In this document: positions 28,072-41,829 of the stretch, piece by piece
Position numbering within the stretch: the stretch's first letter is position 1
How the letters are laid out: each line of letters begins with the position of its first letter
Source of the DNA: Candidatus Nomurabacteria bacterium
GTDB lineage: Bacteria > Patescibacteriota > Minisyncoccia > Phycocordibacterales > UBA9973
DNA: 41,829 nt
Assembly (NCBI GenBank): GCA_029288725.1
Contig: JARIGS010000016.1
Coordinates: 1-41,829, forward strand
Direction: 5' to 3'
Program-made: the position numbers and the translations under genes
The notes under the pieces: generated by a model
Databases searched by the model: none
What the model was told of the DNA's origin: nothing
What the model saw: the letters and a program-made list of their open reading frames with translations, nothing else

Positions 28072-28142
28072 TGCGGGTTCGTCTAATGGTAGGACTACGG
28101 TTTTTGGTGCCGTCTATTGGGGTTCGAGTCCCTGACCCGCAG
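28072..28142 (+). tRNA. tRNA-Gln (TTG); apparent integration target
   Basis: Acceptor tgcgggt/acccgca; anticodon arm acggt-ttTTGgt-gccgt. Confidence 0.9.
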
Positions 28143-29741
28143 CACTCGTGGACTGTTTGCACACATTTGTTCAAACTGTTCTTGTTTTTCAACAGTATTT
28201 ATTGGTTCTAACCGTTCTTTTATCGCTTTTACTTCTCCTGAGACTTTTGTAAGTGGGAACAGGCACTTTTCTATATCAATGCTAATCATTTTATCTTTTA
28301 CTAGCAGGTTCGAACCTAATGCTGAAAGTATTGCGCGTCGTTCATGAATGGTGCCGTTCTTAAACTTTGCCACTGCTTGGTCAATGAATGTGAACATTTC
28401 ATCACCAGTGTTCATCCAAGCATCCACACGCTTCGCCGTTGTTGCAAATAGGTCTTCCAGTCGTTTCTTCTCGGCAAGGAGTGGTGTACGTCTCCTGGTG
28501 AACTCCTCACCGTCAATTTCTCCACTAGCACGCATGTCGGAGAAGCCGTCTATTTTCGCTAGGCAGGCCTTATACGCTTTCTGCTGGCTTTCTACAACCG
28601 CATTACGGCTGCTGATTTCTTTTTCGTTTTCTTTTTCCCACCATTTCATGGCGAACGAATGAAATTCTGGTGGTATATCAACAGTATTTATCTCTGCAAT
28701 AACCTGCTTTTCCAATTCTTTTTGTTCAACGGAACGCTGTGTACAGTTTGGATTAACCCGTTTCGTGCAGTGGTAGTAGACATAGAGATTCACGCTCCCG
28801 TCTCTCAGTTTTTTTGATTTGGTCTCCGCCGTGATTGCTGCACCACACTCTGCACAACGCATCATGCCAGTGAAGTCAAAAACATGTGTCTTTGGTCGTG
28901 GGCGGCCTTTTCTTCCGAGTAGCACCTGAATTTTGTCGTATTCCTCCTCAGTCATGATTGCTTCATGTGTGCCTTGATACCATTTACCACTTCCAATAGG
29001 GTATTCATACATGCCGTAGTAAAACGTGTTTCCAAACATGCGGTAGATTGTGCTTCTTCCGAGCTTCTTGCCCTTTGGTGTTCGAAAGCCCCATTCATTG
29101 TTGGCAATGTCTCTAATCTCAAGGGGCTGATAAGTTCCTGTTAGCATTAGGTCAATCATCTTACGGATAAGCGGCAGGAGTTTCTCGTCAGATACGATAG
29201 TTTTATTTCCTTTTTCGGCATACTTATCATTCAAATAGCCAAGTGGTGCAGGGGCTGGGTAGATACCGAGCTTGGCTTTCTTCTCAAGTCCTCTGGTAAC
29301 ATCGATGCCTTTCTTGTCGTTCTCCATTTTTGCCTGGGTGCAGGCAAGCATGAACATAAACTTGTCCATTGGGGTATTACGGTACGTCTGACCTGGGGTA
29401 ATGATTTCATGCAACCTGCCTCTGTCCATCAGGTCAATAAGTAAAGCACTGTCAATCGCATTACGAGAAAGACGGTCAGCGTGCCACACGATGATGGAAT
29501 TGATAGCTCCGCTTTCAATACGTTCATACATTTCCTTGAACATGGGACGATTGTTTGTAGTCTTGGCGGATTTTGCTTCAACCAGGATGTTCTCCTCAGG
29601 AACCCGTACACCTATATTTCTAGCAATGTCATGGGCTGTGTCTATCTGTGCATCAATGGAGAGCACTTGACGGTCTTCACTTTCACTGCTTTTTCTTCCG
29701 TAAATTGCAGGCTTCAGTTTTATTTCTGCTTCGTTCTTCAT
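28095..29741 (-). CDS. large serine recombinase (resolvase + recombinase + zinc ribbon)
   Basis: AIYGRKSSESEDRQVLSIDAQID; IIVWHADRLSRNAIDS; recombinase-domain GFRTPKGKKLGRSTIYRMFGNTFYYG; MMRCAECGAAI...YYHCTKRVNPNC. Confidence 0.94.
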   Translation of the reverse strand: MKNEAEIKLKPAIYGRKSSESEDRQVLSIDAQIDTAHDIARNIGVRVPEENILVEAKSAKTTNNRPMFKEMYERIESGAINSIIVWHADRLSRNAIDSALLIDLMDRGRLHEIITPGQTYRNTPMDKFMFMLACTQAKMENDKKGIDVTRGLEKKAKLGIYPAPAPLGYLNDKYAEKGNKTIVSDEKLLPLIRKMIDLMLTGTYQPLEIRDIANNEWGFRTPKGKKLGRSTIYRMFGNTFYYGMYEYPIGSGKWYQGTHEAIMTEEEYDKIQVLLGRKGRPRPKTHVFDFTGMMRCAECGAAITAETKSKKLRDGSVNLYVYYHCTKRVNPNCTQRSVEQKELEKQVIAEINTVDIPPEFHSFAMKWWEKENEKEISSRNAVVESQQKAYKACLAKIDGFSDMRASGEIDGEEFTRRRTPLLAEKKRLEDLFATTAKRVDAWMNTGDEMFTFIDQAVAKFKNGTIHERRAILSALGSNLLVKDKMISIDIEKCLFPLTKVSGEVKAIKERLEPINTVEKQEQFEQMCANSPRVLRVRDSNPNRRHQKP

Positions 29742-29967: not shown

Positions 29968-31089
29968 CTAACTTCTGTTCATCAGCTTCTCGATAATCAT
30001 TTTTTCCTCGTCTGTGAGAATGGATTGGTCTTTGTTCTCACTAGAATTGTTGGTCAACTTTTGAACAATTTTTACAGCATCCTCGTTGCTCATGCTACCG
30101 TAGCCATAAGCACCAAATGTGGTAGCAACATTCTCATGACCAAGGTTCAGGCTGATGGCTCTCTTTTCTTCCTCGGTCAGTCTTCGCTTACTGAGAATAC
30201 TTACAACCAGATGGCGAAATGAGTGCGGGTGGAAATACGGCACACCAGCGTTAATGCATCGCTTCTCATAAATTTTGCGTGCTGCCCCTGTGCCCACCCA
30301 GAAGTCCTTGCTGATAGCCTCTTTGCTGTAGTTGTTTTTGTCTGCCGTGAATGAGCTAAGTGTCGCAGGGAAAATGGGGTCGTCCCCGTTAAAGCCTTTT
30401 GATTCGAGATACTCATACCATTCAACAAAGCACTGCTTTGGTACATCCCAGCCAATAGGGAAAAATGTGCTCAGTATTCGCTTAGAGTTCTTTGTACGGA
30501 CTCCATCACCAGGATTCTGGTCTATTTCCATACTGTTCTTGTCGAAGCTCTTCATTTTCAGGGAGATAATGGCAGAGATGCGAGCTCCAGTGGCAAATGC
30601 AAAGCAAATCATTGCCTTGTCACGCATCGCTATCTCTGTCTTGTCATCAATGGATTCAATGATTTTCTTGATGTCCTCAAACGCTGGCAGCTTCTTTGTC
30701 GTGCCAGAGCGGGCGATGCGTGCATCTTTCTTTGACAGCCGCAGGAAGTCAATATCGCTTTTCACTATCTTGCTTTTGTAAGTCGGCTGCTCGGACAACC
30801 ATTCAAAGAACTTCTTTATTCGCCTTAGATAGTTGTACTGCGTAGTGAGGGAGACTTTCCCTGAATCGGTTTTTGATGCCCGACTGCTCAGCCACTCAGT
30901 AAAGGCGACAGCCTTTGACTTGTTGTAGGTGGAAAAATCCTCATTATCGGTGAATGTTTGCCATTGTGAAATGGCTTCGGCGAACACTCGTACCGAGCTT
31001 TTTGCGAATCCTTGGCCGCCTTTCAGATGGTCAAAGAACTCTCGCTTTATTCGTTCGTTTTCGTAGCTTGTTTTTGTCATAGAAGTCAT
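29968..31089 (-). CDS. tyrosine recombinase/phage-type integrase
   Basis: FATGARISAIISLKM; HPHSFRHLVVSILSKR; LGHENVATTFGAYGYGS. Confidence 0.9.
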   Translation of the reverse strand: MTSMTKTSYENERIKREFFDHLKGGQGFAKSSVRVFAEAISQWQTFTDNEDFSTYNKSKAVAFTEWLSSRASKTDSGKVSLTTQYNYLRRIKKFFEWLSEQPTYKSKIVKSDIDFLRLSKKDARIARSGTTKKLPAFEDIKKIIESIDDKTEIAMRDKAMICFAFATGARISAIISLKMKSFDKNSMEIDQNPGDGVRTKNSKRILSTFFPIGWDVPKQCFVEWYEYLESKGFNGDDPIFPATLSSFTADKNNYSKEAISKDFWVGTGAARKIYEKRCINAGVPYFHPHSFRHLVVSILSKRRLTEEEKRAISLNLGHENVATTFGAYGYGSMSNEDAVKIVQKLTNNSSENKDQSILTDEEKMIIEKLMNRS

Positions 31090-31159: not shown

Positions 31160-31504
31160 TTATATTGTCCTGCATATTTTCCCGTTGCAGACACGGCATG
31201 TGCCTAATTTTCTGCCACCCAGCTCCCTGATTGAGCCTCGTCTTGCGTACCGTGCCGCCTTACAGGTAAGGCAGTAAAACTGGTTGCGATTCAGGATAAC
31301 TTTCTTCTTCGCGTCCTTTTTCCTTAGAAAGTCCTTTATGTCGCTGCCCATCATCAGTATGGGTTTCTTGCCCCCAGGTATTGTTTTCAAACCATTGGCA
31401 ATCCATCGGGAGCAAGTCTTTTCATCAACACCAAGTTCGGCTGATAGCTCCTTGACGGTATAGCTCATATGGCCGTAGACTTTTTGACTATTGATTCTAG
31501 TCAT
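31160..31504 (-). CDS. HTH DNA-binding protein with C-terminal Cys2-Cys2 motif
   Basis: YTVKELSAELGVDEKTCSRWIANGLKTIPGGKKPILMMGSDIKDFL; CLTCKAARYARRG...CRVCNGKI. Confidence 0.75.
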   Translation of the reverse strand: MTRINSQKVYGHMSYTVKELSAELGVDEKTCSRWIANGLKTIPGGKKPILMMGSDIKDFLRKKDAKKKVILNRNQFYCLTCKAARYARRGSIRELGGRKLGTCRVCNGKICRTI

Positions 31505-31819: not shown

Positions 31820-33103
31820 CTATTGATATTTGATGACCATTTGGTATTTTCCTGTTCCAATACTATCTATCGTGGCTGGAAAGTTGCCCTTCTTGAGCTT
31901 CGCTCTCAAGCGTTTTAATCCATCTCGAAAGGCTGAATCATCCCTATAGCCCCCAACCTTTTGCAGTGTTTCAATATCAGCATCTTTACCGCTATTTGAA
32001 AGGGTATCATTACGTTCTATTCTAGCGTTCGCAAGCAGTAATTGTATCATCGCCTTTTGTCCTCGTTCGATTGGAACTTTTGTTGTGCCGAAACAGAGAC
32101 TTTCATTCTCAATGAAAATATCCTTCCGAGTTTTGCTTCTTGGAACCGTCAACTGTTGCTCACCAGCACTATCATTTTCCAGTGCTTGTAGAAATGTATT
32201 GTGGACTATTTGAAGAGCTGCCTTGAAGGTAGGCATACTAAGCCTATCGAGCTCGGGGGAGAAAGCCCCCTTAAACTTTCTTGGGCTATCTGGCCGAGTT
32301 TGACCCATCAGATGTTGCAGGTCTTCTGCCATAAATGCTATTTCCATAATATCCTCAGCACGGAACGCATGCCCAAACGCACTTTCTTCGTCTGAAATCT
32401 CCCAGAAGCTCATGTTTTCTAGTACAGCATCGTAAGAGCTCTTAAATTGAAACAGTAGTTCAAATGAACCCCAGGGCTTAAGCGAGCGTTCTCTTTCAAG
32501 TATTATCTCTTGTTCAAAACGCTCAGGCCATTTTTTTGAAAAAATGAAACTACCGCTATCATTTCCCGCGAACCAGTAACCACTGGTACCCTTGATACGC
32601 TGGTAATAGTCTGTATATGCATTCTGCGAAACATGGAAGTCCTTTAGCTCTCCACCATAGCCCATTTTTTGCAAATTTGTAGCGATGTCAAAAAGATACA
32701 CTTGCATGTTATCAGAATAAAAACCACTTCTACGCATTTCCTTGTTCTCATATGCTTCAAGTTCCGCTATTAAATCGTTATAGGGAGGCTTAGGAAAAGT
32801 AGAATGCCGTTCAAACAGGCTTGAATCTATAGAGCTGGTTCTGATAATATCCATGATTTTGTTCTTTGCTGCACGCATTTCTTCTTCTGCCGCTTTCTCA
32901 ATCTCCTCAATTTTTTCATAACGGATGTTACGCTCCCTTATTTGCTTATCAAAAATCCCTTTGAGAAGGGGCGTTTCAAGGGCATATTTTACATATAGCT
33001 CCAATGCCCTGAAAAATGCTAACGCATCTTCTTGTCCAGCAGCGATGGCGTGCAAGCGCTCAAGAGCTTTTTCAGTTTTATCGCTTGAATCCTTAGCAAT
33101 CAT
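31820..33103 (-). CDS. hypothetical protein with a possible C-terminal winged-helix-like region
   Basis: 427-aa ORF; C-term LCFGTTKVPIERGQKAMIQLLLAN...VGGYRDDSAFRDGLKRLRAKLKKG. Confidence 0.65.
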   Translation of the reverse strand: MIAKDSSDKTEKALERLHAIAAGQEDALAFFRALELYVKYALETPLLKGIFDKQIRERNIRYEKIEEIEKAAEEEMRAAKNKIMDIIRTSSIDSSLFERHSTFPKPPYNDLIAELEAYENKEMRRSGFYSDNMQVYLFDIATNLQKMGYGGELKDFHVSQNAYTDYYQRIKGTSGYWFAGNDSGSFIFSKKWPERFEQEIILERERSLKPWGSFELLFQFKSSYDAVLENMSFWEISDEESAFGHAFRAEDIMEIAFMAEDLQHLMGQTRPDSPRKFKGAFSPELDRLSMPTFKAALQIVHNTFLQALENDSAGEQQLTVPRSKTRKDIFIENESLCFGTTKVPIERGQKAMIQLLLANARIERNDTLSNSGKDADIETLQKVGGYRDDSAFRDGLKRLRAKLKKGNFPATIDSIGTGKYQMVIKYQ

Positions 33104-33150: not shown

Positions 33151-33178
33151 TTTACATTGAACGGGTAAATGGTATAGT
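33151..33178 (+). promoter_or_regulatory. sigma-70-like promoter of the structured RNA candidate
   Basis: TTTACA (33151-33156) - 16 nt - TATAGT (33173-33178). Confidence 0.6.
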
Positions 33179-33184
33179 ACAAGC

Positions 33185-33336
33185 ATAACTGAATAGTAGC
33201 CTAAACCAGCGAATAATCGCTGGCATGGCGAAGAAACCGCACGATACTAAAAACCCCATCAGTAGGGCGTATCGTGCGTCGCGTCTGGAAACGGACGTGT
33301 GGAGCTTCACGGCTTCTCCTAGTGATGGGCTTTTTC
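33185..33336 (+). ncRNA. candidate structured non-coding RNA
   Basis: Hairpins 33206-33212/33217-33223, 33238-33246/33270-33278, 33280-33287/33292-33299 (GAAA tetraloop); 33255-33266 pairs with 33318-33329 (11/12) before a CTTTTT tract. Confidence 0.5.
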
Positions 33337-33373
33337 GTGCCTTTTCACTGGGATTATCAGCTAAATAATTTCC

Positions 33374-34546
33374 ATGAAAAACTATTACGAGACACTCGGC
33401 ATTTCCCAGAATGCTACCCAAGAAGAGGTAAAGAACGCTTTTAATAAGGAATCGAAGCTTAACAATTCTGAAGATTTTTCAATACGAGACAAACGTTTCA
33501 GTGAAATCAGTGAGGCATATTTCACCCTTTCAAAGCCAGTAGAACGGGCAAAATATGATTTCAAACTTAGCGGTAAAACCGCTGAAGCATTAAAAAAGCC
33601 AGAAAAAGTAGAGAGTAAGCAAGTGATAAAAAAGAGAAACCCACTTCTCACTGGCTTATATACTGTCCTAGCCGTTATAGGTGCCGTTGGTATCTTCAGT
33701 TCACTGTTCCCTCAAAGCTATACAGTGTATCCTGTCGGCTGTGCAATTTCGGATTCTGCCAACCTAACGGTCAACTCTTCTGGCGAGCTTGATTTTACTC
33801 ACTGCCAAAACCCTCAAGCTGGCGAGCGAGAAACATTCAAGGTTGATGCTGGTAAGAACCAAGTTATAGAAACATCCCCAGATAGTTCTGATGTTGTAGC
33901 ACTGAAGGATTGTACCGTTCAGGATGATGAGCACTGGAGTTGTGGTGATTATTCGAATTGGTCTGGTGGCATATTCGGAGCAATAGTAACAAGTAGAAGT
34001 GGCGACAACTTTAGCGAATCAGGTCTATCAGGGATTTATTTTGTAACTGAAAGCCAGTGGAACTCTATCAATAACGGCAAGCCTGGTTCTTGCAGCACTG
34101 ATGCTTGTAGTGGTAAAAATCCTGGCTCATCAACAGACAGCGATACAACACAAAGCACGGTAACGATTGGGAATGACCCAGTAACTCAGGGGAATATAAA
34201 ATACACTTTTGACTTAAACAATTTAGGAAACACTATTCCAAATGATAGTGGTAATTTTTCAGGAATGACCACAAATGGAGCGTGGGAAGCGGTTACGTTG
34301 CATATGACCAACACCTCTGATTCCAATGTTGTGATTACTCCTACACAATTTCAGCTGACAGACCAGACTGGGCGGCAGTATCAGCCTACAGCCTGGTACC
34401 TATGCAATGACACGGTTGAACATGAGGGTACGGACTACGGCAGCAGCATAACGCTGAAGCCAGGAATAGACTGTGATACGAAGGTACTATTTGAAACAGC
34501 GAAGGATTCAAACGCCTTCACAATATCGGTCAACTACAATAGCTAG
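33374..34546 (+). CDS. membrane-anchored J-like domain protein with C-terminal DUF4352-like domain
   Basis: KNYYETLGISQNATQEEVKNAFNKESKLNNSEDFSIRDKRFSEISEAYFTLSKPVERAKYDFK; TM LLTGLYTVLAVIGAVGIFSSLF; beta-rich C-term with NTSDSNVVITPTQFQLTDQTGRQY. Confidence 0.78.
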   Translation: MKNYYETLGISQNATQEEVKNAFNKESKLNNSEDFSIRDKRFSEISEAYFTLSKPVERAKYDFKLSGKTAEALKKPEKVESKQVIKKRNPLLTGLYTVLAVIGAVGIFSSLFPQSYTVYPVGCAISDSANLTVNSSGELDFTHCQNPQAGERETFKVDAGKNQVIETSPDSSDVVALKDCTVQDDEHWSCGDYSNWSGGIFGAIVTSRSGDNFSESGLSGIYFVTESQWNSINNGKPGSCSTDACSGKNPGSSTDSDTTQSTVTIGNDPVTQGNIKYTFDLNNLGNTIPNDSGNFSGMTTNGAWEAVTLHMTNTSDSNVVITPTQFQLTDQTGRQYQPTAWYLCNDTVEHEGTDYGSSITLKPGIDCDTKVLFETAKDSNAFTISVNYNS

Positions 34547-36145: not shown

Positions 36146-36616
36146 ATGGACATACACATTCGAAAGGCAACCGAAAGCGACACCAGTGCTATTACCGAAC
36201 TGAATTTGCTGATAGCAGACCACCATGCCGACATAGATGGCTTCTACGCTCGTGGGGAGGAGGTGAACAAAACGTTCCCAGCCTTCCTTAGCGAGGACTT
36301 GGCAAAGGAGACGTCTTTGAACCTTGTTGCTGAAACTGACGGTAAAATCGTCGGCTGGTTCTCTGGCTCTATCAAGCGTGACGTGCCCCACCTGTCGGAA
36401 AAGGTCTTTGCCCATATTGGTAGTGCCATCATTCTCCCAGAATACCGAGGCAGGGGCATCGCAAGACTGATGTTCCAGGAAATGGTTGCCTGGTTCAAGG
36501 AAAAGGGTGCCAAGGTCGTAGACCTGTCGGTCGATGCCCGCAACCCAGAGGGTCTGCGTGCCTGGGAGGGTCTTGGCTTCAAGGAATATGCCAAGAAGAT
36601 GAAGATGGAGATTTAA
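36146..36616 (+). CDS. GNAT-family N-acetyltransferase
   Basis: IRKATESDTSAITEL; AIILPEYRGRGIARLMFQEMVAWFKEKGAKVVDLSVDARNPEGLRAWEGLGF. Confidence 0.9.
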   Translation: MDIHIRKATESDTSAITELNLLIADHHADIDGFYARGEEVNKTFPAFLSEDLAKETSLNLVAETDGKIVGWFSGSIKRDVPHLSEKVFAHIGSAIILPEYRGRGIARLMFQEMVAWFKEKGAKVVDLSVDARNPEGLRAWEGLGFKEYAKKMKMEI

Positions 36617-36637
36617 GCATAGAAAATAGTTAGTATT

Positions 36638-37090
36638 ATGACCGACTACCAAATCATAGAAATCAGTGATAGCAATATCGACAATCTACAGCCGCTTGCA
36701 GACGAGGCTTTAGCCGATGGGGACAAGTTCATTCAGAAGACCATTGACGAATGGAAGGGCGGGGCAAACACCTTTTCAAAAAATGGGGAGAAGTTCTGGG
36801 CACTGGTTATTGGCGATGAGTACATTGCCTGCGGTGGTCTTAACCAAGACCCGTATACTGAGGACAAGACAGTGGGACGTGTCCGACACGTTTATGTACT
36901 CAAAAAATACAGGGGGCAAGGCTATTCAAAAGTCATTCTCAACCTGATTATGGAGCAGGCTAAGAAGTATTTTCACTCATTGCGGCTTTCCACATACAAT
37001 CCAGTTGCCGCTTCGCTATACCAGTCGCTCGGCTTTGAGAAGGTTGATGAGTACAAGGCAAATTACATAATCAGGAACCTAAATAACTAA
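36638..37090 (+). CDS. GNAT-family N-acetyltransferase
   Basis: VRHVYVLKKYRGQGYSKVILNLIMEQAKKYFHSLRLSTYNPVAASLYQSLGFEKV. Confidence 0.9.
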   Translation: MTDYQIIEISDSNIDNLQPLADEALADGDKFIQKTIDEWKGGANTFSKNGEKFWALVIGDEYIACGGLNQDPYTEDKTVGRVRHVYVLKKYRGQGYSKVILNLIMEQAKKYFHSLRLSTYNPVAASLYQSLGFEKVDEYKANYIIRNLNN

Positions 37091-41635: not shown

Positions 41636-41829
41636 CATGGGCCCTTAGCTCAGCTGGTAGAGCAGTGCTTTTGCAAAGCAAAGGTCAGGAGTTCGAATCT
41701 CCTAGGGTCCACAAAGAAAAAACCATTATCAGGAGATAATGGTTTTTTCTTTGTGGACCCTAGGAGATTCGAACTCCTGACCTTTGCTTTGCAAAAGCAC
41801 TGCTCTACCAGCTGAGCTAAGGGCCCATG
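41636..41829. repeat. perfect inverted repeat (95-nt arms, 4-nt centre) ending exactly at the contig terminus
   Basis: 41735-41829 is the exact reverse complement of 41636-41730; centre agga at 41731-41734. Confidence 0.95.
41639..41711 (+). tRNA. tRNA-Ala (TGC)
   Basis: Acceptor gggccct/agggtcc; anticodon arm tgctt-ttGCaaa context reading tTGCa; T-arm ggagttcgaatctcc. Confidence 0.93.

What the first reader, a model, noticed from the sequence alone, without database searches (positions are those of the whole stretch)
33151..33336. Island-borne structured RNA candidate with own promoter, possible pseudoknot and terminator
TTTACA-N16-TATAGT is followed by three hairpins (ccagcga-ataa-tcgctgg; cgcacgata...tatcgtgcg; an 8-bp stem capped by GAAA). 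The 23-nt loop of the second (cccatcagtagg, 33255-33266) pairs 11/12 with cctagtgatggg (33318-33329), just before CTTTTT. No convincing ORF occupies it. It sits divergently from the 427-aa protein and upstream of the J-like protein. I recognise no known RNA family.
Basis: partly seen in the sequence, partly recalled or inferred. Interest (0 to 1): 0.72.

Follow-up and report, generated by a model that had tools for sequence, protein, structure and literature searches.

The report
LOOT leader RNA of mobile DNA
The predicted RNA is real and belongs to LOOT, a known RNA family whose job is unknown; comparing about 200 relatives shows that LOOT sits just before a passenger gene in phage-like DNA of tiny Patescibacteria, and that in about a third of cases one strand of it matches the spot where that gene's translation starts, which points to an RNA switch for the gene.

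Summary
In detail: promoter, hairpins, pseudoknot and U-tract are all there. The statement that no known family fits is wrong: 33198-33316(+) is a full-length match to Rfam RF03000 (LOOT, 80.1 bits), an orphan family found in metagenomes. The genome is a Patescibacteria (Paceibacteria-type) genome with three LOOTs.

I collected 169 LOOTs, then 38 independent ones. (1) The pseudoknot lies largely outside the Rfam model; its 14 pairs all have compensatory changes. (2) LOOT lies about 57 nt before the start codon of a same-strand accessory gene, with no promoter between, so it is a 5' leader rather than a stand-alone sRNA. (3) In 47/167 (18/38 in the independent set) the 3' arm of hairpin 2 is exactly complementary, over 8-13 nt, to a site that nearly always ends 0-7 nt before that start codon; cross-locus controls give 1-2%. 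(4) The pseudoknot's 3' strand also pairs just after the U-tract. The result is two near-isoenergetic folds, one free and one with the start codon sequestered. Cargo includes DNA methyltransferases, superinfection-immunity and defence genes; many loci are prophages.

The window's copy has (1), (2) and (4) but lacks the start-codon site. The switch is inferred from sequence; no expression data exist.

The parts
33151..33178 (+). sigma-70-like promoter: TTTACA, 16 nt, TGG-TATAGT
   Evidence: sequence and (10/12). TATAAT-like boxes are enriched upstream of LOOTs: 65% against 34% in shuffled sequence.
33186..33196 (+). conserved 5' motif ATAACTGAATA (family form ACAACTnAATA), probable 5' end of the transcript
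   Evidence: 91/169 LOOTs have at least 8 of the 10 specified bases, 11-25 nt before the model in all but two
33198..33316 (+). LOOT RNA as modelled by Rfam RF03000
   Evidence: 80.1 bits, positions 1-121 of 121
33199..33229 (+). P1: GCC/GGC (33199-33201/33227-33229) closing CCAGCGA-ATAA-TCGCTGG (33206-33223), with the conserved CCTAAAC...GGCATGG
   Evidence: alignment; helix 1
33238..33247 (+). strand A, 5' arm of hairpin P2
33255..33266 (+). strand B in the P2 loop (CCCATCAGTAGG), 5' half of the pseudoknot
33269..33278 (+). strand A', 3' arm of P2. In about 30% of LOOTs this strand is complementary to the downstream start region; in the window it is not.
33280..33299 (+). P3 hairpin with GAAA loop
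   Evidence: helix 3 (8 of 8 pairs compensatory)
33301..33316 (+). P4 hairpin
   Evidence: helix 4
33318..33329 (+). strand B' (CCTAGTGATGGG), 3' half of the pseudoknot, outside the Rfam model
33331..33335 (+). U-tract after B' (terminator-like)
   Evidence: sequence; (T-rich in 157 LOOT tails)
33345..33352 (+). strand C (TCACTGGG), alternative partner of B' (8 bp with 33318-33325) in the read-through RNA
   Evidence: fold; family-wide enrichment (0/2000 permutations)
33374..34546 (+). cargo gene: 390-aa protein with J domain and DUF4352; ATG 57 nt after the LOOT model end
   Evidence: PHROGs 14336 and 806, unknown function
31820..33103 (-). divergent 427-aa gene of unknown family (context only)
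   Evidence: no match
31160..31504 (-). excisionase-like HTH protein (context)
29968..31089 (-). tyrosine integrase (context)
28095..29741 (-). large serine recombinase that overlaps tRNA-Gln 28072-28143 (context)

Best explanation
The element is a LOOT RNA acting as the structured 5' leader of the accessory gene behind it (here a J-domain/DUF4352 protein) on a mobile island of a Patescibacteria genome. Transcription starts just upstream. Strand A' in hairpin 2 pairs with A; the hairpin-2 loop (B) pairs with B' just before the U-tract and makes a pseudoknotted, terminator-like end. Some RNA polymerase reads through into the gene, whose start codon lies about 57 nt behind the modelled RNA. In the read-through RNA, B' can pair instead with C behind the U-tract. 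In about 30% of family members A' can pair instead with a copy of A (site T) that lies directly before the start codon. The two folds exclude each other: the upstream fold (A-A', B-B') leaves the start codon free; the downstream fold (A'-T enclosing P3, P4 and B'-C) buries it. I infer that LOOT keeps accessory genes of mobile DNA (methyltransferases, superinfection-immunity and defence-type proteins) off or low and lets them be switched. Shown: family membership, pseudoknot covariation, leader position, A'-T and B'-C complementarity. Inferred: termination, direction of regulation, the trigger, and cis rather than trans action. The window copy has the pseudoknot and C but no T, so only the B'-based half of the switch is available to it.
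For: Family. Three LOOTs in the genome; 103/384 genomes of the class and 84/381 of the phylum, samples overlapping. Pseudoknot. Leader: ORF start 40-69 nt after LOOT in 113/165, median 57; -10 boxes enriched upstream of LOOT but not between its tail and the ATG (15% against 23% shuffled). A'-T: bimodal match lengths, 42/141 with at least 9 nt against about 0.5% cross-locus; 47/167 with at least 8 nt, ending 0-7 nt before the ATG in 41 of the 44 with an ATG; spacing to ATG sd 1.8 nt against 6.0 nt to LOOT; independent set 18/38 with at least 9 nt against 1.6% cross-locus. Eight methyltransferase genes carry seven different A/A'/T triplets that change together. At the three G-U positions of P2, T follows A' 3/3. 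P1, P3, P4, the 5' end and strand A give no signal. In the window's own genome CCCGCTAGAG occurs only as A, A' complement and T of one LOOT. B'-C: 0/2000 permutations. Fold energies -80.0 against -77.4 kcal/mol; start region free 0.63 against 0.27.
Against: No transcript or reporter data. The U-tract is imperfect in many members. About 70% of LOOTs, the window included, have no T and no hidden weaker pairing, so T cannot be the universal function. No ligand or trigger is known. At locus L080 a second gene keeps an 11-nt T while its own LOOT has decayed and lost P2, which fits trans action better than cis. Energies ignore the pseudoknot.
Confidence: 0.72

Rival explanations
1. LOOT is mainly a trans-acting antisense RNA: the short terminated RNA uses A' to block translation of the neighbouring gene's mRNA and of any other mRNA with a T site, as phage C4 RNA does.
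For: Terminator-like end; A'-T position on the start codon; second gene with an exact 11-nt T but a decayed LOOT at L080; Rfam types LOOT as sRNA gene; C4 precedent (PMC5320573).
Against: A' is locked in a 10-12 bp stem that is as stable as the A'-T duplex (-20.2 against -19.5 kcal/mol). LOOT is nearly always about 57 nt upstream of and on the same strand as its gene. Genome-wide only the neighbouring T exists in the case tested, and the window's A' has no site at a start codon anywhere in its genome.
Confidence: 0.25
2. A, A' and T are DNA operator half-sites of an island-encoded transcription factor; the RNA pairing is incidental.
For: A and A' form an inverted repeat and T a third copy.
Against: T is anchored to the start codon (sd 1.8 nt), a translational landmark. 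The RNA shows compensatory changes in its other helices. 35 different arm alleles occur among T-bearing LOOTs without a matching diversity of adjacent regulators. T follows A' at G-U positions.
Confidence: 0.04
3. A' is a guide for an RNA-guided enzyme or recombinase, and T is the target or insertion site left next to the element.
For: Serine recombinases near many LOOTs (26 loci); a variable arm that matches adjacent DNA.
Against: T sits 0-7 nt before start codons of unrelated genes inside the element. No dedicated effector gene is constant beside LOOT. About 70% lack T.
Confidence: 0.02
4. LOOT without T (such as the window copy) has another, perhaps ancestral, role, for example binding a metabolite or protein through the conserved CCUAAAC/GGCAUGG region; the T pairing is a later add-on.
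For: 70% lack T; most of the most constant positions lie in the P1 region.
Against: No ligand evidence. It is compatible with the leader model rather than exclusive of it.
Confidence: 0.35

Closest known systems
LOOT RNA, Rfam RF03000
   Same: Whole model matched (121/121), P1-P4 layout, conserved CCUAA and GCAUGG, GAAA-capped P3
   Different: Rfam types it as an sRNA gene and its model ends before B', the U-tract, C and T. No function was found in the papers held. R-scape work added 2 pairs in Rfam 15 (PMC11701678), and CaCoFold noted unusually many cross-covariations (PMC7657543).
C4 antisense RNA of phages P1/P7 (Rfam C4; c4-2 RF02944)
   Same: Phage-borne structured RNA in the leader of the gene it controls; short variable segments complementary to the start region of the downstream gene; many copies with changed specificity
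   Different: C4 pairs through loop segments a' and b' after RNase P processing (PMC5320573). LOOT's complementary strand is a stem arm with an equally good upstream partner. The window region did not reach the gathering score of any C4 family.
Attenuator or riboswitch-type leaders
   Same: Promoter, structured RNA, terminator-like end and coding gene on one strand; two exclusive folds, one of which buries the start codon
   Different: No known ligand. The switching strand differs from locus to locus and is matched only to its own gene.

Membership tests
LOOT (RF03000) | Covariance-model score above gathering threshold over the full model | tested here: met
   80.1 against 46.4 bits, 1-121/121
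LOOT (RF03000) | Conserved P1 with CCUAA..GCAUGG, P2, GAAA-capped P3 and P4 | tested here: met
   alignment
LOOT (RF03000) | Stand-alone sRNA gene (Rfam type 'Gene; sRNA') | tested here: inconclusive
   ORF start about 57 nt behind and no promoter in between argue for a leader; not tested by RNA-seq
Start-codon-paired LOOT subclass (defined here) | A' complementary over at least 8 nt to a site ending 0-7 nt before the start codon of the next gene | tested here: not met
   Window: longest match 4 nt. Met by the other two LOOTs of the same genome.
C4 antisense RNA | Match to the C4 covariance models | tested here: not met
   cmscan of the window with all Rfam families: only LOOT and tRNAs
C4 antisense RNA | Processed by RNase P from a longer leader transcript and acting in trans | not testable with these tools
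   needs RNA data
Intrinsic terminator | GC-rich stem directly followed by a U-tract | tested here: inconclusive
   Stem present as a long-range pseudoknot; the simple scan finds no local hairpin terminator on the + strand; U-tract imperfect in part of the family

The most novel reading that the evidence does not exclude
LOOT RNAs are a phylum-wide class of bistable leaders carried by Patescibacteria phages and islands. Each T-bearing one carries a private address strand matched to the start codon of its own cargo gene, so that several cassettes can be controlled independently in one tiny genome. This would give the orphan family its first function and would be RNA-based control of phage-borne methyltransferases and superinfection-immunity genes in a group where almost nothing is known of regulation.
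Probability: 0.6. Interest if true: 0.78.

Novelty: new variant of a known kind. Interest (0 to 1): 0.62.

Why it matters
LOOT is an Rfam family for which I found no assigned function. The complementarity to start codons, found in one set and repeated in an independent set, turns it into a testable regulator and names its targets locus by locus. It ties an orphan RNA to the cargo of prophages and islands (DNA methyltransferases, superinfection-immunity proteins, Shedu and other defence genes) in Patescibacteria, which cannot easily be studied by genetics. It also shows that the Rfam model is truncated at the 3' end and that the type 'sRNA gene' probably needs correction.

Tried and rejected
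Direct-repeat or recombination-site reading of the repeated arm: rejected because the copy is anchored to the start codon. Regulon of several T sites in one genome: only the neighbouring site exists for CCCGCTAGAG. Hidden or weaker T in target-less LOOTs: none. Pairing of P1, P3, P4 or the 5' end with the downstream leader: none. A target of the window's A' elsewhere in its genome: 1-mismatch 12-mers found, none before a start codon. Relatives in named phage records: no DNA match, and the terminase only below 60% identity. A flanking repeat that would mark the island ends: not found. The original LOOT paper (gkx699) is not held.

Full report
Observation. Rfam gives the answer to 'which family': LOOT, RF03000, whole model, 80.1 bits. 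LOOT comes from metagenome mining (Rfam 14, PMC7779021); Rfam 15 added two covarying pairs (PMC11701678), and a structure-prediction study noted 28 unusual cross-covariations in it (PMC7657543). I found no paper that gives it a function, but the original description was not available.

Organism. The genome is 725 kb in 29 contigs, 97% complete, with three LOOTs. LOOT is in 21/60 near relatives, 103/384 genomes of the class and 84/381 of the phylum sample (the two samples overlap). None of 14 well-known control genomes has it.

Context. Around 30 LOOTs with flanks of up to 10 kb, serine recombinases (26 loci), DNA methylases, small terminase and large terminase recur. A terminase profile brought back 80 genome loci and 80 viral-contig loci; LOOT or a LOOT-like RNA lies near the terminase in about 36 and 7 of them. 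So many LOOTs are in prophages. The window's island carries a serine recombinase beside tRNA-Gln, a tyrosine integrase and an excisionase-like protein; I saw no terminase near this LOOT.

Structure. RNAalifold on 32 diverse LOOTs, without any hint, chose the helix between the hairpin-2 loop and the tail (B-B'): all 14 pairs have compensatory changes and 93.3% of cells pair; for the whole structure 0/500 shuffles reach the observed values and slid controls collapse to about 40% paired. Independently, B pairs with its own B' over 11.5 bp on average against 7.1 bp with other loci.

Leader, not free gene. In 113 of 165 LOOTs the next same-strand ORF starts 40-69 nt after the model end (median 57). 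TATAAT-like boxes are enriched just upstream of LOOT but not between its tail and the start codon. The gene is thus most simply transcribed from the LOOT promoter through an imperfect terminator.

Start-codon complementarity. The 3' arm of hairpin 2 (A') matches, as exact complement, a site T before the next gene. Match lengths are bimodal: 42/141 have 9-13 nt, the rest are at background; cross-locus pairs, sense strand, upstream and further-downstream controls show almost none (Fisher p about 7e-50, which overstates significance because loci are related). With the enlarged set, 47/167 have at least 8 nt, and in 41 of the 44 with an ATG the site ends 0-7 nt before it. The spacing to the ATG is much tighter (sd 1.8) than to LOOT (sd 6.0). 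In an independent set fetched through the terminase, 18/38 have at least 9 nt against 1.6% expected. Within one family of methyltransferase cargo, eight loci carry seven different A/A'/T triplets that change together. A' is the partner rather than a copied DNA repeat: at the three G-U positions in hairpin 2, T follows A' each time (a small number). All other LOOT segments are clean negative controls.

Second alternative pairing. B' also pairs with a strand C just after the U-tract (mean score 15.8 against 12.6, 0/2000 permutations); in the window this is 33318-33325 with 33345-33352. A'-T encloses P3, P4 and B'-C without crossing, so the leader has two complete, mutually exclusive folds of similar energy (-80.0 and -77.4 kcal/mol on average, pseudoknot not counted), and the region around the start codon goes from 63% to 27% unpaired. 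This is the basis for the switch model. It is a model: nothing here measures expression.

Cargo. Genes behind T-bearing LOOTs include N6/N4 and D12 DNA methyltransferases (8 and 5 of 44 members match), restriction-type domains and two superinfection-immunity proteins. Genes behind T-less LOOTs include DUF4352, zinc-ribbon, SNase, T5orf172 and Shedu proteins, and no such methyltransferases appear among 88. The window's gene (J domain plus DUF4352) belongs to the second group.

The window copy. Its A' has at most 4 nt of complementarity to the downstream region and no site at a start codon in the genome. The other two LOOTs of the genome do have T (9 and 10 nt, 7 and 5 nt before the ATG), one of them unique in the genome. 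So the window copy is a full member of LOOT but of the T-less majority; for it, only the pseudoknot/U-tract and B'-C half of the model applies, and what it senses is unknown.

Cis or trans. Geometry and spacing favour cis. One locus (L080) has a second gene with the same 11-nt T behind a decayed LOOT without hairpin 2, which would make sense if the intact LOOT acts in trans, as C4 RNA of phages P1 and P7 does (PMC5320573). Both may occur.

Novelty. The RNA itself is a known family. The leader role, the start-codon addressing, the two-fold architecture and the link to mobile-element cargo are, as far as the literature I could search shows, not described. I rate it a new variant of a known kind (attenuator/C4-like leaders).

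Noticed in passing
41636-41829: The contig ends in a perfect 95-nt inverted repeat (4-nt spacer) that carries tRNA-Ala twice in opposite orientation; probably an assembly artefact at the contig end.
   Followed up: no
L290 1260-1424; also L296, L240, L225, L213, L226, L230, L238: Longer (about 160 nt), weaker LOOT-like RNAs found by the extended model. Several carry an exact start-codon site, and the viral record of L290 has no RF03000 match, so Rfam may miss a divergent subfamily.
   Followed up: partly
L080 (+930 to +1080 from LOOT start): A decayed second LOOT without hairpin 2 in front of a gene that keeps the 11-nt site ACCTACGCGAA of the intact LOOT upstream.
   Followed up: partly
L092 around 1470-1600 (G000:C4:30740): A short terminator-like stretch before a prophage methylase gene that begins like a LOOT leader (CACAACCGAATA) and holds 11/12 bases around the window LOOT's strand A; may be chance.
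   Followed up: no
window 36146-37090: Two GNAT acetyltransferase genes in tandem downstream of the island genes.
   Followed up: no
cargo alignments A3 against A4: DNA methyltransferases are cargo of T-bearing LOOTs (8 N6_N4_Mtase and 5 D12 matches among 44) and appear among none of 88 T-less ones.
   Followed up: partly
L033, L085/L133, L126, L165, L170 and others: Several LOOT cassettes, mostly with different A' strands, in one genome or contig (up to 7 in G292), as if kept distinct.
   Followed up: no
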